The position numbers and the translations under genes were made by a program. Below are positions 5,197 to 43,653 of a stretch of DNA of 64,000 nucleotides, one piece after another. The stretch is from Candidatus Sumerlaeaceae bacterium (GTDB lineage Bacteria > Sumerlaeota > Sumerlaeia > Sumerlaeales > Sumerlaeaceae): contig JAIBAT010000150.1 of assembly GCA_019695055.1 (NCBI GenBank), positions 99,543 through 163,542 of the forward strand, given 5' to 3'. The notes beneath the pieces are model-generated. The model was not told where the DNA came from. It was given only the letters and a program-made list of their open reading frames with translations, and did not search any database. Numbering within the stretch: position 1 is the first letter of the stretch; each line of letters opens with the position of its first letter.

Positions 5197-6744
5197 TCAC
5201 TGCGCGGACTTCTGCTTTCTGATGGCAAGGTCCGTGGAACTCAGCGGTTTCGCCGCCTTGAGCTGCGTTCCGTTCAGCGAGTAAACAAAATCATCGTCAG
5301 TGTCCTCCTGGCCGTCGCGCCCGAAGGATTTGATCGTGCCACCGCTTGACGACGTGATCACAAATGCATTCCCCCACGCATCCTTTGCGTCCTCCTCCGC
5401 GACAACCCCTTCGCTGACCAGCTCCTTCATGCGCGGAATGCCTGTCTTGCCGGGTTCGCGGCGATAGTTGATGATCTTGAGGACCGTCCCATCAATCCGG
5501 TTCATGGTGACCTGCGCCTTTTCGTTGTCCTCGGCCACGATCTCGTCCGGTGTCTTCTCGCGGATCTCGCCACCCTTGTTGATCAGCCCGGCCACCCATT
5601 TCGTGATGGCGGAGGGTTCGCCCTCCTTTTCCTCGCCGCCCGCTTTGACATACGCCACGATGGCGGCGCCAATAATGAGCACGCCAAACAACGACAACAT
5701 GATCGTCTTGAAGCGCGATTCCGGCTCGGGATCAGGCAAATCCTTCAGCTCAACGCTGACCAGGCCCTCGGTCAAATAGGACCGCGGCGTGCCGCCACCA
5801 TGCCCCGATTCGCTCAGAGCCCCATTATCCTCCGATAGCAGCGTCGGGCTGCCGGCGTCGCCGATGCGCCGCTCCTTACCGAGGCGATGGATCTTTGCGG
5901 ATTCCAGCTCGCTGATGAGGCGGTCGTAATCCTGATAGCGCTGGCTCGGATCCTTGGCCATCATCTTGCAGATGATCTCGTTAATGTCCGCCGGCACCTT
6001 CGGGTTGATCATGTAGGGCGGCATCAGCGGCGTGTTCACGTGCTTGAGCATGATGGCCATGGCTGTTTCCCCGTCGAACGGGCACTGGCGCGTCACCAGC
6101 TCATAGAACGTGGCGCCCAACGAATAAATGTCGCTGCGGTGATCCACAGCGCGCCCCATTCCCTGCTCGGGCGACAGATAGCGCGGCGTGCCGACGACCA
6201 TGTTGGTGCCGGTCAGCATCGACCGATCCCAAAGGGATTTTGCGAGCCCGAAGTCGATGATCTTCACCACCCCGTCCGGCGTCACCAGCAGGTTCGTGGG
6301 CTTGATGTCGCGGTGAATGATGGAATGCCGGAATGCCATCTCCAGCCCCCGTGCCACCTGGACCACGAAATCCACCAGCGTCGAGAACGGCGCATTGGGA
6401 TTGCGCTTGCAGTAAACGTCCAGCGGTTCGCCATCAATGAATTCCATGACGATAAACGGCGAGTTGTTCTCGTCGTATTCCATGCCGTAAATTTTGGCGA
6501 TGTTCACATGGTCCAGCGCATGGACGGACGTGGCCTCGCGCTCGAACCGGCGGATCAGCTCGGGATCCTGACCTGCGTCGGGATCAATCTTCTTGATGGC
6601 CACATAGCGCTGGTTCAGCTCGTCCAGGGCCTTGACCACCTCCCCCATGCCGCCGCGGCCCAGGGACTTGATGACGCTGTAGGTGCCTATGCGCTGGACG
6701 TTCGCGTCCAGCGCGTTCTCGAAAACTGTATGTTTGTCATCCAT
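5197..6744 (-). CDS. Transmembrane Ser/Thr protein kinase with pseudopilin-like extracytoplasmic C-terminus
   Basis: 515-residue Hanks-type kinase. The cytoplasmic catalytic domain (about 20-285) has the glycine loop GRGGMGEV (29-36), Lys51, HRDIKPTN (144-151), DFG (164-166), GTPRYLSPEQ and SDIYSLG. A linker leads to a single transmembrane helix (~346-367). The outside part (~370-515) ends with DAWGNAF (455-461) followed by SFGRDGQEDTDDDF, the calcium-loop pattern of GspG-type pseudopilins. Family kinases usually have PASTA, beta-propeller or no sensor, so this tail is notable. An in-frame GTG at 6774 would add ten residues; I prefer the ATG at 6744. It lies between hisS and gmhA on the same strand, 60 bases before gmhA. 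Confidence 0.9.
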   Translation of the reverse strand: MDDKHTVFENALDANVQRIGTYSVIKSLGRGGMGEVVKALDELNQRYVAIKKIDPDAGQDPELIRRFEREATSVHALDHVNIAKIYGMEYDENNSPFIVMEFIDGEPLDVYCKRNPNAPFSTLVDFVVQVARGLEMAFRHSIIHRDIKPTNLLVTPDGVVKIIDFGLAKSLWDRSMLTGTNMVVGTPRYLSPEQGMGRAVDHRSDIYSLGATFYELVTRQCPFDGETAMAIMLKHVNTPLMPPYMINPKVPADINEIICKMMAKDPSQRYQDYDRLISELESAKIHRLGKERRIGDAGSPTLLSEDNGALSESGHGGGTPRSYLTEGLVSVELKDLPDPEPESRFKTIMLSLFGVLIIGAAIVAYVKAGGEEKEGEPSAITKWVAGLINKGGEIREKTPDEIVAEDNEKAQVTMNRIDGTVLKIINYRREPGKTGIPRMKELVSEGVVAEEDAKDAWGNAFVITSSSGGTIKSFGRDGQEDTDDDFVYSLNGTQLKAAKPLSSTDLAIRKQKSAQ

Positions 6745-6828
6745 GGATTCTTTTGCCGCGAGAACTTTCCCCACATGGCCGTGCGGGTGTCAACAGGAAC
6801 TCCCCGCGCCCCGATGCGAAACGCGCCC

Positions 6829-17028: not shown

Positions 17029-19308
17029 ATGCGGATAACTCATGGCGCCCGAGGCTCTTCCTTTATCCTCGTTCTGGCGCTGCTCACACTATTGGTTTTT
17101 CTGGCGGCGGTCCTTTCCTATACGTCGCGGCTTGAGGCGCTGACGAGCGGGAACTATGCCAAGATTGCCCAGGCGCGGGAATCGACAGCGACGGGATTGC
17201 CGGCAGCGATGAAATTGGCGCGGGGCGGGACCTCGGTGACGACGATCCTGCAGCCGTGGCACCAGGCGCTGGCCGCAACGACACAGAAGGCTCCGGCGCG
17301 AAGTGCCAATGCGCGAACGACACGAAACATGTATGGCGACAACGCAACAACGTCGGGCCTGGGGCGCGACGTGGCCACAATGCTTGGAACTGGGCTGGAG
17401 GCGGCCATCGCGGTGGACGACCTGTGTTCAAAGGTTAACGTGAATGCAATCCAGAGTGAGCGGGCCTTTGAAAAATTCCTGAGCGCGGCCCTGAGCGGGG
17501 CAAGCGGATCCATGGCCAGCGGGGCGCAAACCCGGGCGCAGGGATTGTTCGAATATCGCGGCGGGCGGAACGGGGCCGTGGATACGGGAAATCCCATGCT
17601 GGACGGGACCAAGACTTCCAACGAACCGAAGTGGAAGACGGAGCCGGACCTGCGCAAGGCGCCTCCGGAAGGCGTGAAGCGGTTTGAAACGGTGCAGGAG
17701 TTGCGTCAGTCGCGGCGCACTTCGCCGCAGTTGTTCACGGACAAGGAAATGAGTGTCCTGGGGCGCTATGTGACGGTATTCTCGCAGTCGCCCGAGGTAC
17801 TTAACAAGCCGGATGGCTCAAGCCTTCCGAAGTTGCCGATGGAAGGAATCACGGCCCACAGCGTTTATCTGGCTCTGCGACAGGCGTTTCCGGAGAAGGA
17901 TCCGCGGCTGCTGATGCAGTTCGCGGCAAACGTGATGGATTACTATAATCCCGACGGGCCGCCGACGGTGATCACGGATCCGCGGCATCCGCAGCCATGG
18001 AACGCGCTGTTTGGCGTGAAGCCGACGCCGCTGATTACGGAGATTTATCCGCGGGCCATGGGAGTCGGGGAAAACTCGACACAGGGACAGTTTGTGGAGA
18101 TTTACAACCCCTGGGGGCAGCCCATGTCGCTTGTCAATTGGCGGCTGGCCATTGCGGCGACGAATGGCGCCACGGGTGGAGTGACGCTGAATGCGGTGCT
18201 GCCGCCGGGTGGGTACCTGATTGTCACCAACAACTACGACAAGCCCGACCAGAAGGACCCCGCAGAGACGGGATCGTTTCTCTCGATCTTTGGCGCGCGG
18301 CAGGACGGAGGGCAGAAGAAGGTGGTCACCGACGCCGGATTCCGCCTGCCGGAGGAGAATTCCTTCGTGGCGCTGATAGACAACAATGGCGGGCTAATCG
18401 ACGTGTTCAGCTACACGGACGTGGTCGGACACAATACCAAGAAGAGCTACCAGCGGGATGACCCGCGGGTGCGGTCGTTCGAGGTGGGCGAGGCCACGCC
18501 GTTTGAGAAGCCGGGGTCAGGGATTTATCATGGCACGGCGGAGGCCGAGATGGCCATGCGCAAGGCGTTCCAGTCGGACAGCCAGGAGACCAGCAGCCCG
18601 GTGGACATGTTGCGGATTTCGACGGCCTACGCAGGATTGCGGGCCAACGGGGAGCGAATGAAACTGGAGCCCCACGGCTGGCAAATGCCGGAATACCTGA
18701 AGTCTGTGGAGCCCAAGGCCACGAATTTTGATGTGTCGCTGGTGGATGTTTTCACGACGGTCAAGCCGCCAAAGGCGGAGGGGGATGAAACGTCCGGGGC
18801 AGCGACGCTGCGAACGAAACTGGCAAACCTGAAAGTTGGTCAGAAGATCATCGAAGATTACGAGAAGCGCAACAGCGAGACGGTAACCACGGGGACCACC
18901 TACTATGCCTATGGTCGCCTGAACGTAAACACCTGTGCCAAGGTGGCTTATTTCAGCCTGGATGGTCTGGTGGATGGAACCGATTTCATCACGGCGAGCG
19001 TGGTGGACGGGCTGGAGAACTTCCGCCAGAAGAGCGAGGGGCAGAAAACCGTGCCTTTCCTCAATACGAGCGACTTTTTGCTGAAAGTGTTCCCGGACAA
19101 GCTGTCGGACAGCCAGTTTGCGGCTGCTGCGAAGCTATTGGACCAGGTAACGGTGAGTTCCAGCTCTTTCAACATCACGGCGGAGAACCGAGCCGACAGC
19201 CAACCGGGTGGTGGCAACGGGGTCAGGCCGTCTTTGGTGAGAATGAACTGGATGGTGGCGCTTGACCGCCAGCCTTTGAGCCTTATTGGTTTCAGTACGG
19301 ATCATTAG
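17029..19308 (+). CDS. GspK-like minor pseudopilin with lamin-tail-like domain
   Basis: 759 residues. The N-terminus (RGSSFILVLALLTLLVFLAAVLSY) is the class III signal and helix of type II secretion GspK, which as usual lacks the Glu at +5. VDDLCSKVNVNA (~128-140) matches the D..(G)K(I/V)N(L/V)N signature that follows in GspK. Residues ~333-460 (LITEIYPRAMG, FVEIYNPWGQPMSLVNWRL, LPPGGYLIVTNN) look like a lamin-tail domain, a beta-sandwich found in extracellular proteins and not part of classic GspK (~330 residues). GspK caps the pseudopilus tip, so this could display a binding domain there. Six prepilin-like genes follow on the same strand after a 142-base spacer with its own promoter. Confidence 0.82.
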   Translation: MRITHGARGSSFILVLALLTLLVFLAAVLSYTSRLEALTSGNYAKIAQARESTATGLPAAMKLARGGTSVTTILQPWHQALAATTQKAPARSANARTTRNMYGDNATTSGLGRDVATMLGTGLEAAIAVDDLCSKVNVNAIQSERAFEKFLSAALSGASGSMASGAQTRAQGLFEYRGGRNGAVDTGNPMLDGTKTSNEPKWKTEPDLRKAPPEGVKRFETVQELRQSRRTSPQLFTDKEMSVLGRYVTVFSQSPEVLNKPDGSSLPKLPMEGITAHSVYLALRQAFPEKDPRLLMQFAANVMDYYNPDGPPTVITDPRHPQPWNALFGVKPTPLITEIYPRAMGVGENSTQGQFVEIYNPWGQPMSLVNWRLAIAATNGATGGVTLNAVLPPGGYLIVTNNYDKPDQKDPAETGSFLSIFGARQDGGQKKVVTDAGFRLPEENSFVALIDNNGGLIDVFSYTDVVGHNTKKSYQRDDPRVRSFEVGEATPFEKPGSGIYHGTAEAEMAMRKAFQSDSQETSSPVDMLRISTAYAGLRANGERMKLEPHGWQMPEYLKSVEPKATNFDVSLVDVFTTVKPPKAEGDETSGAATLRTKLANLKVGQKIIEDYEKRNSETVTTGTTYYAYGRLNVNTCAKVAYFSLDGLVDGTDFITASVVDGLENFRQKSEGQKTVPFLNTSDFLLKVFPDKLSDSQFAAAAKLLDQVTVSSSSFNITAENRADSQPGGGNGVRPSLVRMNWMVALDRQPLSLIGFSTDH

Positions 19309-19399: not shown

Positions 19400-19450
19400 C
19401 TTTCTGCGGATAATGGTATGGTTCAGGGCCGTCTAAATATCGTAAAATCA

Positions 19451-20218
19451 ATGCGTTCCAAGGGCTTCACGCTCGTGGAAATGCTGATTGTTGCTGCGCT
19501 AATCGCGCTGTTTGCGGGTCTTGCCGTGATCAATATCCAGCAGCAGTTTGAACTGAACAAGCAGAAGGCTGCCACGGCCGAGTGCCGCGAAATTGGCACG
19601 GCGATGAGTTTTGCGCTCAATGACCTCGGTTTTTACCCCAAAATCTGCTTCCTGCGATTCAATTATCTGACGCTAACACAGGAAATCTCGACGCTTCCGC
19701 TGAACCAGTTCGAGTACCACGGGCTGACGGTGGGCGGGATTACTTCGCGGCTGCAGAACCAATGGAGCAAGGCTGGTGCTTATGCGGCTTTCAACTTCAA
19801 GAAGCTGGCTTTGATGCAGATTCCCGGTTCGAGTCGCGACCCGTTTGAGTGGCCTGCGGATCCGTGGAATAATCCGTATGTGGCTTACATCGTGCAGGCC
19901 GTGCAAAACGGCAATACCGTGGAGAACCGGTTCATCAAGTCGGCTGGGGAAACGGGCAATTTCTTTGCGGGTGTTGTCAGCTATGGCCGCAACCGTGTGC
20001 CGGGGTTGACGGATGAGCCGACGGGAGCGGATATCAATGCGCGCAACGCTCTGCGGCTGTATAAGGATGGTGCCGCTTTCAATACTTACATTGCGCTGAC
20101 GGAAACGGAATACGATGCGGCGAAGGCGGCCATGATCTTCACGTCGCCGCCGAATCCGACTCCGCTGACGCCGCGCATTCGCGACAACAATTCTGACGAT
20201 CGTGTTTTTGAATTCTGA
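19451..20218 (+). CDS. Prepilin-like protein 1 of the array
   Basis: 255 residues from the ATG at 19451; an ATG at 19418 would add 11 residues but leaves almost no leader after the promoter. MRSKGFTLVEMLIVAALIALFAGLAV is a type IV/GspG prepilin leader: cleavage after Gly, Phe at +1, Glu at +5, then the hydrophobic helix. The C-terminal domain has DPWNNPY, a YGRNRVPG loop and ends with DNNSDDRVFEF. It is longer than GspG (~140). It is the first of six related tandem genes and probably a pseudopilin subunit exported by a type II secretion-like machine encoded elsewhere. No ATPase or platform gene is in the window. Confidence 0.88.
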   Translation: MRSKGFTLVEMLIVAALIALFAGLAVINIQQQFELNKQKAATAECREIGTAMSFALNDLGFYPKICFLRFNYLTLTQEISTLPLNQFEYHGLTVGGITSRLQNQWSKAGAYAAFNFKKLALMQIPGSSRDPFEWPADPWNNPYVAYIVQAVQNGNTVENRFIKSAGETGNFFAGVVSYGRNRVPGLTDEPTGADINARNALRLYKDGAAFNTYIALTETEYDAAKAAMIFTSPPNPTPLTPRIRDNNSDDRVFEF

Positions 20219-20243
20219 CAAGGCGAGGACCATTTCGAGGACC

Positions 20244-21047
20244 ATGAAACCTGAGTCTAAAGATATGAGCCGGCGGCAAGGCCGGTGGGCACGGCGCAGC
20301 CTTGTGGCGCGGCGGCATGGGCGCAATCGCGGCTTCACGGCCATTGAAATCGCCATGGTGGCAACAGTCATCGCGATCTTTGCGCTGCTGGTGCTGCCGT
20401 TGTTCCGCAACCGCGTGGAAGAGGCCAAGGTGGCGGCGGCCAAGGCGGACCTGACGAGCCTGATGAAGGCCGAGGAACTGGTGTTGGCAGATACGGGCTT
20501 CCTGATTCGCCTGGAGGATTTGGACAACGTTGAGGGATTGGCTGCGGACGCGACGGGTGTGGCCCCGGCCATTTACCTCTCCACTCCGGGATTTTATTAC
20601 GTACCCCGCGCGGCGCTTTACACCGGATCGCGCGTGGTTCTCAATTCGACGCAGCGCGATGACCTCGCCAAGAAATTCCGCGGACCCTACATAGCCTTCC
20701 AGAAGTCGATCACTTATGGGGACCTGACGACACTGGCGAGCTACGCATCGCTGGCCAACGTCTTGCTGGTGAGCCGGACGGGTAATGTGGCCAGCCCGAT
20801 TTACGACGTAACTGGCGGTTCGTTCCCCGATGCAACGGTGAACCGGATCCCCTTGGATCCGTGGGGCAATCCCTATCTGTTTTATCCGTCGACGGCGGAA
20901 ACGGCTTTCAATGCCATATACTCTCTGGGCAGGGACGGTTTGCCAGGGCGGTTGACGGGCACCACGCCAGCGGATTTCCTGCCCGGTGCAACAAACGGGT
21001 TGGGAACGGTCGGTACGGACATTGACGATCTTGAGGTGCGTTTCTAA
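20244..21047 (+). CDS. Prepilin-like protein 2 of the array
   Basis: 267 residues from the ATG at 20244, chosen because GAGGACC lies directly before it; a start at 20202 would overlap the previous gene. The basic leader is long (~30 residues, MKPESKDMSRRQ...) before NRGFTAIEIAMVATVIAIFALLVLPLF, with Gly-1, Phe+1 and Glu+5. The C-terminal part contains LDPWGNPYLFYP, IYSLGRDGLPG and ends with GTDIDDLEVRF, the most GspG-like tail of the array. The stop overlaps the next start as TAATG, so translation of the two is coupled. Confidence 0.88.
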   Translation: MKPESKDMSRRQGRWARRSLVARRHGRNRGFTAIEIAMVATVIAIFALLVLPLFRNRVEEAKVAAAKADLTSLMKAEELVLADTGFLIRLEDLDNVEGLAADATGVAPAIYLSTPGFYYVPRAALYTGSRVVLNSTQRDDLAKKFRGPYIAFQKSITYGDLTTLASYASLANVLLVSRTGNVASPIYDVTGGSFPDATVNRIPLDPWGNPYLFYPSTAETAFNAIYSLGRDGLPGRLTGTTPADFLPGATNGLGTVGTDIDDLEVRF

Positions 21048-21802
21048 TGATGAGAACAGGGCGCTATAGCGCGGCGGGACGCCGGGCCGGTTTCACGATC
21101 ATCGAGCTTTTGATCGCGGTGATCATCATCGGCATTCTTGTCGCCATCGTTATCAACGTCTACACGTCACGCGCGGAAGACGCACGGCAGGCAGCGGTGC
21201 GGGCCGACCTTGAGGCAATCTGCACGGCGCAGGAACACGCAGGCATCGACACGGCATACTTTTACCAGCTTTATTGCCTGGACGACGTATATCAGGGCGA
21301 CGGCGTTGCCCCAGCGAACACGGCCACGGACCGGGCCGACGGTCTGACGGATGAGGCCATTCGTACCGACGTTTCGAGCGACCCCAAGCGCATCTTCATC
21401 GACACGAAGGATGGCGATGTGCCGGCGGGTTACACAGGAATTTTCAACGGCTTGCTGGCGAGCGAAACGCGCTTCAACTGGCGCGGGCCCTACTGCAACA
21501 TTAGCAAGAAGTCCCAAATTAACGAATTTACAGGGCCAACGGCCTCGGTTCAAGTGCCGGCGGGTTTCCCCATCGACCCGTGGGGACGCCCCTATCTGTT
21601 CTTTACGAAGAAGGGATATGTGGATCCCATCACACTGTCGCTGGTGACATCGCTGACGGTCAGTGGTGTGGCCGTGACAAGTGCCCAGATTCCGTTTGAC
21701 CGACCAACCATTCTGTCACTGGGCCGTGATGGGGCCGTTGGTGACGGGGCCGTACCCGGTTCGGTGTTTGGCCAGGGTGATGATATTTACAGGCAGTTTT
21801 AG
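21047..21802 (+). CDS. Prepilin-like protein 3 of the array
   Basis: 251 residues; its ATG shares one base with the previous stop. MMRTGRYSAAGRRAGFTIIELLIAVIIIGILVAIVINVY has a 14-residue leader, Gly-1, Phe+1 and Glu+5. The soluble domain holds IDPWGRPYLFFTKKGY and LSLGRDGAVGDGA, and ends with GQGDDIYRQF. It keeps the array pattern of a DPWxxPY motif followed by a Gly/Asp-rich loop. No Cys-rich or catalytic motif is seen. It is followed 20 bases later by the next array gene with AGGA as ribosome site. Confidence 0.88.
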   Translation: MMRTGRYSAAGRRAGFTIIELLIAVIIIGILVAIVINVYTSRAEDARQAAVRADLEAICTAQEHAGIDTAYFYQLYCLDDVYQGDGVAPANTATDRADGLTDEAIRTDVSSDPKRIFIDTKDGDVPAGYTGIFNGLLASETRFNWRGPYCNISKKSQINEFTGPTASVQVPAGFPIDPWGRPYLFFTKKGYVDPITLSLVTSLTVSGVAVTSAQIPFDRPTILSLGRDGAVGDGAVPGSVFGQGDDIYRQF

Positions 21803-21822
21803 GAAAGGATGACCTGCGTCTC

Positions 21823-22578
21823 ATGAGACGTTATACGAACCATAAGGTCCGCGGTGTGACGCTGACAGAGTTGCTGGTGGTCATGGTGATCGTGACGCTG
21901 TTTTCCACGATCGCAGTGATTGCCTATATCAACCGCATGGAAGAGGCGCGCATCTCGATCGCGAGAGGCGAATGCCGGGAATTGGCCGAGGCCGAGGAGC
22001 AGTGCGCCCTGATTCATGGTTATTATGTGCCGCTTCAGGTGTTGGACGACAAACCGGATCTGAACAACATCACCTCCACGGGCGATGCCATTGACCTTGA
22101 TCTTCTGAACAGCCTGTTTGTTATAAACCCCCTTGTTCCACCGGTCACGCAGCAGGGAAACCAGTTGAATATGAACAATACCAACCAGCGGATCCAAGAC
22201 TTGGTGGACAACTGGCAGGGGCCGTTCCTGACCACGCAGCGGGTTTATACTGGCAACGCAGACCCCACAAATCCGAACTTCATCAACTCTACAGAGATCC
22301 ACTTGGATTTTCCCCTGGATCCCTGGGGCACACCCTACCGGTTCTACTCACCCCTTGGAATCATTGGTTCCAATGCCACCACGCAGGACTATACGAATCT
22401 TGGAGTGGCTTTCAGCAACGGCATCCTGACCAACAACATCCAGGAGCCGTTTGATCGCTACGCCGTCACGAGTTGGGGACGCAACACCCAACCCAACACT
22501 TTGACGCCAAGTGACACGGACGACATCATCTACCAGTTTGGCATGGCGGGTGTGGAATCGACATTTGCAAACCCCTGA
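21823..22578 (+). CDS. Prepilin-like protein 4 of the array
   Basis: 251 residues. The cleavage site is unusual: VRGVTLTELLVVMVIVTLFSTIAVIAY keeps Gly-1 and Glu+5 but has Val instead of Phe at +1. The C-terminal domain has LDPWGTPYRFYSPLG, a SWGRNTQPN loop and SDTDDIIYQFGMAG near the end, with about ten extra residues compared with its neighbours. The central part is Asn/Thr-rich. It is encoded between two other array members in the same orientation with short spacers, so a structural role in the same fibre or complex is inferred. Confidence 0.86.
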   Translation: MRRYTNHKVRGVTLTELLVVMVIVTLFSTIAVIAYINRMEEARISIARGECRELAEAEEQCALIHGYYVPLQVLDDKPDLNNITSTGDAIDLDLLNSLFVINPLVPPVTQQGNQLNMNNTNQRIQDLVDNWQGPFLTTQRVYTGNADPTNPNFINSTEIHLDFPLDPWGTPYRFYSPLGIIGSNATTQDYTNLGVAFSNGILTNNIQEPFDRYAVTSWGRNTQPNTLTPSDTDDIIYQFGMAGVESTFANP

Positions 22579-22631
22579 CAGGGCATAATTGACATATAAT
22601 GGTTTACGGACGAACGGGAGACATAGGGAAA

Positions 22632-23231
22632 ATGAGGAATCAGAAGGGTTTCACGCTGCTGGAGCTGCTTGTGGTGGTGTTGATTCTCAGCCTGCTGGCG
22701 ACCATGGTGGTCGGCATGTATCTCAACCAGATGAACAAGGCGCGCATCGCGGTTGCCCAGGGCACCATCCGCGAGATTGAGCATGGCGCGCTGCGGTATC
22801 AACTGGACTTGGGTGTCTTCCCCCCAAGCCTGAGCCTGAATCCGGCGATTGTGTCGGGCGGTGGTTGCGGCTTTGTTTACGAGGCGTTGGTCCATAGCGT
22901 CGGCGGCACGAGCCAGAATCCGTCGGACTCGCGCTGGACGGGGCCCTACATCTCTGTGGAGAATGTGAATCTCGACCAGAGTGGCGGCGACGGCAACGTG
23001 CAGATTCTGGACCCATGGCGCACGCCCTATCGCTTTGTGCGCAAGAATGACTACGCGGCGTCGGGAACTCCCCTGCCATCGGGCAGTCCCTACATTGGCG
23101 AAACGTGGTATAACCCCCAGACGGTGCAGGTTGTCTCCTATGGCGCCGATGGCCTGCCCGGCAATGCCGGCTTGGGCACCTTTCCGAACAACCTCGGCGA
23201 GGGCGACGACGTAACGAATTTCGGACTATAG
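22632..23231 (+). CDS. Prepilin-like protein 5 of the array
   Basis: 199 residues from the ATG at 22632 (an ATG at 22599 would add 11 residues). MRNQKGFTLLELLVVVLILSLLATMVVGMYLNQMNKARIAVAQGTIREIEHGALRYQLDLGVFPPSL is very close to GspG over its whole N-terminal half. The C-terminal part reads ILDPWRTPYRFV, then GETWYNPQTVQVVSYGADGLPG and ends EGDDVTNFGL. It and the next protein are the closest pair in the array and match along their length, which suggests a recent duplication. Confidence 0.88.
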   Translation: MRNQKGFTLLELLVVVLILSLLATMVVGMYLNQMNKARIAVAQGTIREIEHGALRYQLDLGVFPPSLSLNPAIVSGGGCGFVYEALVHSVGGTSQNPSDSRWTGPYISVENVNLDQSGGDGNVQILDPWRTPYRFVRKNDYAASGTPLPSGSPYIGETWYNPQTVQVVSYGADGLPGNAGLGTFPNNLGEGDDVTNFGL

Positions 23232-23279
23232 GCCCGCAAATCAGTGCGGACGGAACAGGCATCCCAGATCGTGCGAAAA

Positions 23280-23903
23280 ATGTTGGATAAGCGCACCTCC
23301 CGGCAGGTGAAACCCGCCGCCTTCACGCTCATCGAGCTGATGGTGGTGGTGATCATTCTGAGTATGCTGGCGTTGCTTGTCATGGGATCGTATTTCAATC
23401 AGGTGGAGCGCGCCCGCAAGGCAGCCGCCAAGGCAACGATCGCCGAGATGGAGGTGGCCATCACACGTTATCAAGTGGATACCTGCGTGTATCCGCCCAG
23501 CCTGAGCGCCGCCAGCCCCGACGGCTGCGGAATGTTGGAACTGGTCCTGATCCACAGCACGAGTGGCAACTCGAACATTCCTTCCAGCGCCATGTGGAAG
23601 GGCCCCTACCTGACGGTAAAGCAGGAGCTGCTGGGCGATCTGAATGGCAATAATGTCATTACGGGACTGACGGCTGGCAACGTCCAGATTCTTGACCCAT
23701 GGAATAACGCTTACCGGTACGTGCTGGAATCAAACTATAACCTCTATGGCACGGTCCTGCCGAGTTCACATCCTTACGCCACGACAGAGACTTATTACAA
23801 TCCCTCGACCTTCCAGATCGTATCGCGTGGTCCCGATGGCGTCACACTAGCAGATCCGAACTATGGCACGGGCGCTGACGACATCAATAACTTCGGCGAG
23901 TAG
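23280..23903 (+). CDS. Prepilin-like protein 6 of the array
   Basis: 207 residues from the ATG at 23280; a GTG at 23244 would add 12. The leader ends PAA before FTLIELMVVVIILSMLALLVMG, so the cleavage site has Ala instead of the usual Gly at -1, while Phe+1 and Glu+5 are kept. The domain reads ILDPWNNAYRYV, TETYYNPSTFQIVSRGPDGV and ends ADDINNFGE, paralleling protein 5. Whether prepilin peptidase accepts Ala at -1 here is open. It is the last gene of the array; no clear terminator follows. Confidence 0.86.
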   Translation: MLDKRTSRQVKPAAFTLIELMVVVIILSMLALLVMGSYFNQVERARKAAAKATIAEMEVAITRYQVDTCVYPPSLSAASPDGCGMLELVLIHSTSGNSNIPSSAMWKGPYLTVKQELLGDLNGNNVITGLTAGNVQILDPWNNAYRYVLESNYNLYGTVLPSSHPYATTETYYNPSTFQIVSRGPDGVTLADPNYGTGADDINNFGE

Positions 23904-41595: not shown

Positions 41596-41805
41596 ACAGC
41601 CGCTTAGAACCCCTTGGGGAATCATCGCAACGAGTGAACTCAGAGTGCACCATTATTCAGTATGGCGGGCTCGATCCATTTGGTTAGGGGCTATTCCGGC
41701 TAAAGCACCCAAAGGGAGATTCATGCAGGTTTGATGGCCCACTGGGCTGCACCTTCAGGCGCATTTCACTTTGACAAATGTTCCATACACCGCGCACCTG
41801 AACTC

Positions 41806-43653
41806 ATGAAGGTAAAGCACCGTCGTTTCATAGGCATTTTCCCGATTTGCCTGTTGGCCACCATTGCATTTGCGGCTGTGGAATCGGGTACCACCGGGCG
41901 GGAAATCTACCTAACCGAGGGGGGCGCCTATTTTCTGGTCCTGGATCGCGATACCCAAGGGGCTTACACCCTCGCCAAGGGCGGAACTGACTCGCAGACA
42001 ACAAAGTACTACACGGTAAGCGTCACCGGAACCCAGAAACTCCTCCACCTGACACTTGGAATGCCCGGAGGGTTCAAACTTGTCGAAAGTTTGGTTCTGC
42101 CATCCGGTGAACAGGACTGGTTCATTGCCAAAATTGAGGACTGCCCACCCGCATACAATATCAGAAAGTACAACTGGCGGGAGCTTTCTCCGCCGGTGCG
42201 CTACCTTCACCGATTGGACGATAACAACATTGTACGCTATTTCGAGGTGCTGGAGAACGTCCCGCGGCCGGACCACCAGAACTACCGCGCAACTCCTTCG
42301 CGCCATTTGTGGAACGACAATACGACAACAGCCCCACTCGTTGAAATTGCTTCGCAGATACTGGCCGCTCACCCGAAAGATCTTTGGGCCCGGGTCCTTT
42401 TTCTGGATGCAGCGGCCCGAAGCAATCGGGCTTTGCTCAAGGACAAGCTGTCAGAGTGGGGGGCTGACTTTCAAAGGTGCGGCGATTCGCTACTGCTTGC
42501 CTCATTTGCAAAAGCCCGGCGGGCCGCGAGGGCCCATGAACTTTCATTAAATGGACAGAATGGTTACGCCCTGCTCGACAACTATTGGGAATCTTCCGCC
42601 ACGCTTGTCCAACGAATCCTCAACCTGACCAGGGCGCTTCAGCTACCGTCCGCTGAATTGGCCCCGACTGTGACCGAACCCTGGGACGAGGCACCCAGTT
42701 ACCTCGATGTGCTAAACCTGGCCAAGGTTTCGCGAACCATTGCGAATCTTCTACTGTTTGATGATCGGCGTGACGAAGCGGGGAGAATCTTTGCCGCCAA
42801 TTACCGGATCGGGCAGTGGTATTCGGGCGACTATAGCGTGCTTGCGCGCCTTATTGGCATCTCCCTGCGTGACATGGCCAGCGACGGGCTGATTCTGTTT
42901 GTGCTTAATGGCTGTGACAGCCACGAGGATTTTGCAACACTGTGGAGCCGGCTCGAGAATCTCAACCGGGTTGACCTGAAACAGCAAACGGAAGATTCCC
43001 CAGACTTTGAGATGACGAAGCTTCAATGTCTGCGGCAGACTGGTTTTATCTCGGAGTACGATTTTCGGAGAGACATTGCCGTAGCAAGATTCCAATTGGT
43101 ACGCATGGTTACGGCCGCGAGGGACCACGTCGTCACGACCGGCAATTGGCCAGACTCAGAAAAGGAATTCGCACCACTTCTCCTCGATGGACCGCCGCGC
43201 GACCCATTCTCTTCCAACACTTTGCGGTTTCGGGCTGTGGCCGACTCATTTGTCTGCTACAGCGTTGGCCCTGACGGACGCGATGGCTGTGCGCAAATCT
43301 GCTATGATCCGACAAATGGCACCGTGAGCGACGGCGACATTATGACGACCATTCCCCGCGAGCGCAAATATCCGTTTCCCCGGTCCGGCGTTCGCGCCTC
43401 AACGGCGGAGGACGTACGCAAACAGTTCCCGAACGGGTTACCGCCAGACATTTTCGCCGCCAAAGATCGCAGCCTAAGCGTGACGAGTTCTCTCCCGATC
43501 ATCATTTACAGCCAAGGTCCAATCTGCTGTCTGAACTGCGGACAAGGCGATTCGCTTCCGGGTGAACCCAACTACCGTCCGAAAGTTGAGTACGATCCAA
43601 CGAACGGCACGGTTAGTGCGGGAGAGCTACTAATACACATCCCGCTGAAGTGA
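41806..43653 (+). CDS. Secreted protein with pseudopilin-like C-terminal segment
   Basis: 615 residues from the ATG at 41806; earlier in-frame codons lack a signal. MKVKHRRFIGIFPICLLATIAFAAVESG is a signal peptide or anchor. The middle is helical, with TPR-like spacing, and has no named domain. Residues ~427-500 (MVTAARDHVVTTGNWPDSEKEF, then PPRDPFSSNTLRF and CYSVGPDGRDG) resemble the end of GspG-type pseudopilins: a helix, DPF in the place of DPW, and the Gly/Asp loop. Two copies of (C)YDPTNGTVSDG / EYDPTNGTVSAGE near the end are also striking. The function is unknown. It lies 175 bases upstream of the BlaI operon. Confidence 0.7.
   Translation: MKVKHRRFIGIFPICLLATIAFAAVESGTTGREIYLTEGGAYFLVLDRDTQGAYTLAKGGTDSQTTKYYTVSVTGTQKLLHLTLGMPGGFKLVESLVLPSGEQDWFIAKIEDCPPAYNIRKYNWRELSPPVRYLHRLDDNNIVRYFEVLENVPRPDHQNYRATPSRHLWNDNTTTAPLVEIASQILAAHPKDLWARVLFLDAAARSNRALLKDKLSEWGADFQRCGDSLLLASFAKARRAARAHELSLNGQNGYALLDNYWESSATLVQRILNLTRALQLPSAELAPTVTEPWDEAPSYLDVLNLAKVSRTIANLLLFDDRRDEAGRIFAANYRIGQWYSGDYSVLARLIGISLRDMASDGLILFVLNGCDSHEDFATLWSRLENLNRVDLKQQTEDSPDFEMTKLQCLRQTGFISEYDFRRDIAVARFQLVRMVTAARDHVVTTGNWPDSEKEFAPLLLDGPPRDPFSSNTLRFRAVADSFVCYSVGPDGRDGCAQICYDPTNGTVSDGDIMTTIPRERKYPFPRSGVRASTAEDVRKQFPNGLPPDIFAAKDRSLSVTSSLPIIIYSQGPICCLNCGQGDSLPGEPNYRPKVEYDPTNGTVSAGELLIHIPLK

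What the first reader, a model, noticed from the sequence alone, without database searches (positions are those of the whole stretch)
5197..6744. Ser/Thr kinase whose outside domain looks like a pseudopilin C-terminus
The single-pass kinase has DAWGNAF and SFGRDGQEDTDDDF outside the membrane, the same pattern as the array proteins (DPWGNPY and SLGRDG...). Using the pseudopilin calcium-loop module as a sensor or as an attachment point to pili would be a new kinase input.
Basis: partly seen in the sequence, partly recalled or inferred. Interest (0 to 1): 0.7.

Follow-up and report, generated by a model that had tools for sequence, protein, structure and literature searches.

The report
Receptor kinase with pilin-like outer domain
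A bacterial membrane protein kinase from a little-known phylum carries, on its outer side, a domain with the fold and calcium loop of a type II secretion pseudopilin; the same pairing is kept across that phylum, so it is a real and apparently undescribed kind of kinase input.

Summary
The ORF (minus strand, 6744-5197, 515 aa) is an intact Hanks-type Ser/Thr kinase (residues 22-270), one transmembrane helix (348-366), then an extracytoplasmic module (about 399-497). The module is a genuine pseudopilin (GspG) globular domain. AlphaFold2 from two sequences, no templates (pLDDT 87), returns GspG structures as the top six PDB matches (3gn9 rmsd 2.2 A over 89 residues; 3g20 Z 9.4). Profiles of 21 kinase modules align with GspG over 80 columns (P 5e-15), and the half before DxWG still scores 31 against a shuffle maximum of 13.6. 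The calcium side-chain ligands of 3g20 are all present. The prepilin leader is absent, so it is not itself a pseudopilin. The organism is a Sumerlaeota bacterium. Catalytic kinase-TM-module proteins occur in 21 of 39 genomes of its class, in nine families; their kinase domains group together (100/99) apart from the genome's other kinases. Pseudokinase and kinase-less versions keep the module. Outside the phylum the module sits on DUF4388-TM proteins and alpha-2-macroglobulins. Best reading: a calcium-stabilised pilin-fold sensor or association domain on a receptor kinase. The ligand, and any contact with pili, are untested.

The parts
5197..6744 (-). Kinase-TM-GspG-like module ORF, 515 aa from ATG 6744 (a GTG start at 6774 is also possible)
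5935..6681 (-). Hanks Ser/Thr kinase domain, residues 22-270, motifs GRGGMG, VAIKK, HRDIKPTN, DFG all present
   Evidence: PF00069 E 1.3e-49; motif positions
5647..5703 (-). Single transmembrane helix, residues 348-366, preceded by a conserved juxtamembrane stretch (LPDPEPESR) and followed by an acidic linker
   Evidence: hydropathy; alignment of relatives
5254..5550 (-). GspG-like extracytoplasmic module, residues about 399-497
   Evidence: AF2 pLDDT 87, GspG top structural matches, profile comparison
5368..5382 (-). DAWGN motif, residues 455-459
   Evidence: D and W nearly invariant in the family
5287..5328 (-). Calcium-type loop SFGRDGQEDTDDDF, residues 473-486; D477, T482 and D485 correspond to side-chain ligands D117, T122 and D125 of 3G20
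   Evidence: with PMC3396595

Best explanation
It is a single-pass receptor-type Hanks Ser/Thr kinase whose extracytoplasmic domain was built from a pseudopilin (GspG-type) globular domain. Shown by sequence and prediction: intact kinase motifs, one TM, a C-terminal GspG-fold module with all calcium side-chain ligands, no prepilin leader, and inheritance of the arrangement across Sumerlaeota. Inferred: the kinase is inside and the module in the periplasm; the module binds calcium and needs it to fold; binding of a partner to the module changes how kinases associate and so sets autophosphorylation. The most likely partners are pilin-fold proteins: the cell's many pseudopilins, or the paralogous pseudokinases and kinase-less proteins that carry the same module.
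For: Kinase motifs and Pfam. Fold: AF2 without templates, then GspG 3g20 Z 9.4, 3gn9, 3fu1 and 4lw9 Z 8.5-8.7 at rmsd 2.2 over 88-89 residues, 5o2y Z 8.0 and 1t92 Z 7.7, ahead of type IV pilins. Homology beyond the motif. Ligand positions conserved; a peptide of the related consensus loop binds Ca2+ at 33-79 uM (PMC3396595). Catalytic kinase-TM-module in 21 of 39 class genomes. Module-bearing kinases form one group against 22 other kinases of the genome, support 100/99. In families f7 and f13 pseudokinases with the module occur in the same genomes as catalytic ones. The module also ends DUF4388-TM proteins in other lineages.
Against: No ligand, calcium binding or kinase activity was measured. 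Genes within about 3 kb of the kinase are not shared with relatives, so context names no partner. The loop varies in some kinases (L049 and L058 lack the usual DD), so calcium may not be needed in all. The module could be only a stable folded tip.
Confidence: 0.6

Rival explanations
1. The module is an attachment point: it docks on, or is built into, a pseudopilus, holding the kinase at the secretion or pilus machine.
For: Same fold and same N-in/C-out order as a pilin; Sumerlaeota genomes hold tens of pseudopilin-like genes (54 TIGR01710 matches in this genome). DUF4388 proteins carry the same module; DUF4388 corresponds to the PATAN domain by my own knowledge, and PATAN regulators bind the pilus motor PilB1 (PMC7690835).
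Against: No prepilin leader or Glu5, no hydrophobic helix running straight into the domain, and about 30 residues of linker after the TM, so it cannot pack into a filament core as a normal subunit. No synteny with pilin genes was seen within 3 kb in relatives.
Confidence: 0.15
2. The module is a passive structural or dimerisation cap, without a ligand.
For: The same module is reused in unrelated exported proteins, including alpha-2-macroglobulins, which suggests a generic stable fold.
Against: Conserved for a whole class in one kinase lineage, in pseudokinases and in kinase-less forms.
Confidence: 0.2
3. Only a calcium loop of the PERCAL kind is shared, by convergence; the rest is not a pilin domain.
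For: The G-x-D-G-x(5)-D-D motif occurs in unrelated proteins (PMC3396595); the single-protein Pfam match is weak.
Against: The half before DxWG aligns with GspG by itself, score 31.1 against a maximum of 13.6 in 200 shuffles and 6.9 reversed; the whole fold matches GspG.
Confidence: 0.03

Closest known systems
T2SS major pseudopilin GspG/PulG (PF08334, TIGR01710)
   Same: Globular fold, long helix, DxWG, short beta hairpin, calcium loop with D, T and D ligands
   Different: No leader peptide, no alpha1-N continuous with the domain, shorter stretch between alpha1 and DxWG, fused to a kinase through a TM and linker
PASTA-type receptor kinases (PknB/Stk1, NF033483)
   Same: Closest NCBIfam kinase match; N-terminal Hanks kinase, single TM, C-terminal outside domain
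   Different: Outside domain is a pilin fold, not PASTA repeats; score 317.5 is under the family cut-off of 450
DUF4388-TM-GspG-like proteins found here (L135, L137, L138, L145, L150)
   Same: Cytoplasmic domain, single TM, C-terminal GspG-like module
   Different: DUF4388 in place of the kinase; found outside Sumerlaeota

Membership tests
Hanks-type Ser/Thr kinase | Glycine loop, catalytic Lys, HRD, DFG | tested here: met
   Motifs at 29-34, 48-52, 144-151, 164-166; PF00069 E 1.3e-49
Hanks-type Ser/Thr kinase | Kinase activity | not testable with these tools
   Needs an assay
T2SS pseudopilin GspG | Globular GspG fold | tested here: met
   Predicted model; top six structural matches are GspG, Z 7.7-9.4
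T2SS pseudopilin GspG | Calcium ligand residues | tested here: met
   D477, T482, D485 correspond to D117, T122, D125 of 3G20; sequence only, binding not tested
T2SS pseudopilin GspG | N-terminal prepilin leader with G-F and Glu5 | tested here: not met
   N-terminus is a kinase; the TM IMLSLFGVLIIGAAIVAYV lacks the motif
T2SS pseudopilin GspG | PF08334 score over the curated cut-off | tested here: not met
   17 bits against 21; 4 of 26 family members match at E 0.05 or better
PASTA receptor kinase | PASTA repeats in the outside domain | tested here: not met
   No PASTA family among the Pfam matches of 26 members

The most novel reading that the evidence does not exclude
Sumerlaeota run a kinase-pseudokinase signalling set whose members meet through shared pilin-fold outer domains, so that pseudopilins in the periplasm, or calcium, directly set Ser/Thr phosphorylation: secretion or pilus status read by a receptor kinase through a pilin mimic.
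Probability: 0.2. Interest if true: 0.8.

Novelty: new variant of a known kind. Interest (0 to 1): 0.58.

Why it matters
Bacterial receptor kinases are classed by their outside domains, and few inputs are known. This adds a pilin fold to the list, kept across a phylum but mostly invisible to Pfam. It also shows the pseudopilin globular domain as a portable module used apart from any filament, with a testable link between secretion or pili, calcium and Ser/Thr phosphorylation.

Tried and rejected
Chance motif or disorder: rejected by the fold model and the profile tests. Convergent calcium loop only: rejected by the N-half test. Viral contigs: no relatives for the single protein; the alignment was not conserved enough to search with. 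Full-length AF2 from two sequences failed for the kinase (mean pLDDT 43) though the module stayed at 72-86, so nothing is said about kinase-module contacts. Shared gene neighbours: none found within about 3 kb in relatives. Kinase fusions outside Sumerlaeota: 30 stretches, mostly long ORFs, fetched from two wider samples (291 genomes of one phylum, about 346 others) held none, but not every hit was opened. Literature searches found no description of such a kinase; the library holds open-licence papers only.

Full report
The thing itself. The finding's interval translates, on the minus strand, to a 515-residue protein. Residues 22-270 are a protein kinase (PF00069, E 1.3e-49) with an intact glycine loop, catalytic lysine, HRD and DFG. 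There is one strong hydrophobic segment at 348-366; basic residues precede it and an acidic linker follows, which fits kinase inside and C-terminus outside (inference). DAWGN (455-459) and SFGRDGQEDTDDDF (473-486) lie in the outer part.

Is it a pseudopilin domain? For this protein alone Pfam gives PF08334 only at E 0.0063, under its cut-off, and only 4 of 26 relatives match it at E 0.05 or better, so standard annotation would mostly miss it. Three independent tests settle it. (1) A profile of 15 homologous modules searched against PDB sequences finds GspG proteins as the first five and as eight of nine hits, best E 6e-4. (2) An alignment of the modules of 21 catalytic kinases compared with an alignment of GspG from Sumerlaeota and other bacteria gives 80 aligned columns at P 5e-15. 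With everything from DxWG onwards removed, the first half still scores 31.1; 200 column shuffles reach at most 13.6, and reversed profiles 6.9 and 8.6. (3) AlphaFold2 with two sequences and no templates gives pLDDT 87 and pTM 0.78: a long helix, short helices, then strands around the loop. Foldseek's best PDB match is GspG 3g20, though with E 0.033 only. VIA-align ranks six GspG structures first (Z 7.7-9.4; 3gn9, 3fu1 and 4lw9 at 2.2 A over 88-89 residues), then type IV pilins.

Calcium. In 3G20 the ion is held by side chains of D117, T122 and D125 in PGPDGVPNTEDD, and a peptide of the related consensus binds calcium at 33-79 uM (PMC3396595). The kinase loop FGRDGQEDTDDD has D, T and D at those places. 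Across the family the first D and the DD are nearly invariant, with exceptions such as L049 and L058. Binding itself is not shown.

Who has it. A 57% identical full-length relative is a Candidatus Sumerlaeaceae bacterium (L051), so the window comes from Sumerlaeota. Among 39 genomes of the class, 31 have a module match. Some of those are plain pilins or fragments; after opening the ORFs, catalytic kinase-TM-module proteins are present in 21 genomes of nine families. The genome has 25 kinase matches, and the module search finds only this one with the module. In a tree of kinase domains the 21 module-bearing ones fall on one side of a branch with support 100/99 against 22 other kinases of this genome. 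That fits one fusion followed by inheritance, although kinases of other species without the module were not included.

Variants. In families f7 and f13 genomes also carry pseudokinase versions with the same TM and module but without HRD and DFG, for example G031 (L040 catalytic, L061 pseudokinase), G036 (L042, L063), G037 (L058, L012), G013 (L054, L065), G026 (L062, L060) and G034 (L056, L064). f7 genomes also hold kinase-less TM-module proteins such as L009, L014, L015 and L036, which keep the juxtamembrane motif. The module is thus kept where catalysis is lost.

Elsewhere. No kinase fusion was seen among the long ORFs opened outside Sumerlaeota, but the same module ends single-TM proteins with an N-terminal DUF4388 domain (Pfam E down to 2e-34, with T2SSG over its cut-off in two of five), and it lies inside alpha-2-macroglobulins just before the A2M domain. 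The pilin globular domain is therefore a portable extracytoplasmic module.

Mechanism. The best-supported reading is a receptor kinase whose outer domain is a calcium-stabilised pilin fold that binds a partner and alters kinase association. Fold, topology order and inheritance are supported by computation; calcium binding, partner and regulation are inferred. It is not a pseudopilin: no leader peptide, no Glu5, and a linker of about 30 residues between the TM and the domain. It is not a PASTA kinase, though the kinase domain is PknB-like.

Noticed in passing
L104 (G341:C60), L110, L127, L134, L148, L149, L152: Alpha-2-macroglobulin-like proteins of about 1500-1600 aa with thioester GCFEQT carry a GspG-like module between the bait-region domain and the A2M domain (Pfam A2M, TED, A2M_BRD and weak T2SSG in L104); most of the 79 matching genomes of one phylum and several other lineages show ORFs of that size.
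   Followed up: partly
L135, L136, L137, L138, L145, L147, L150: DUF4388 - single TM - GspG-like module proteins in several bacterial lineages outside Sumerlaeota.
   Followed up: partly
G000 and other Sumerlaeota genomes: Sumerlaeota genomes are very rich in pseudopilin-like genes: 54 TIGR01710 matches at E 0.001 in the window's genome.
   Followed up: no
window 17029-19308 and 19418-23903 (+): An array of six N-methyl pseudopilin-like genes follows a large GspK-position protein that holds a lamin tail domain (PF00932).
   Followed up: no
window 41731-43653 (+): A 640-aa protein without Pfam matches ends in a degenerate pattern, DPFSSNTLRF...SVGPDGRDG, possibly another pilin-like module.
   Followed up: no
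L125, L126, L128; L069: A GspG-like tail (SSIGTDGVKGTDDDW type) at the C-terminus of a conserved protein of about 570-640 aa in three genomes, and a DPFSPGKTEPFRY...SLGPDG variant at the end of a 1058-aa Sumerlaeota protein.
   Followed up: no
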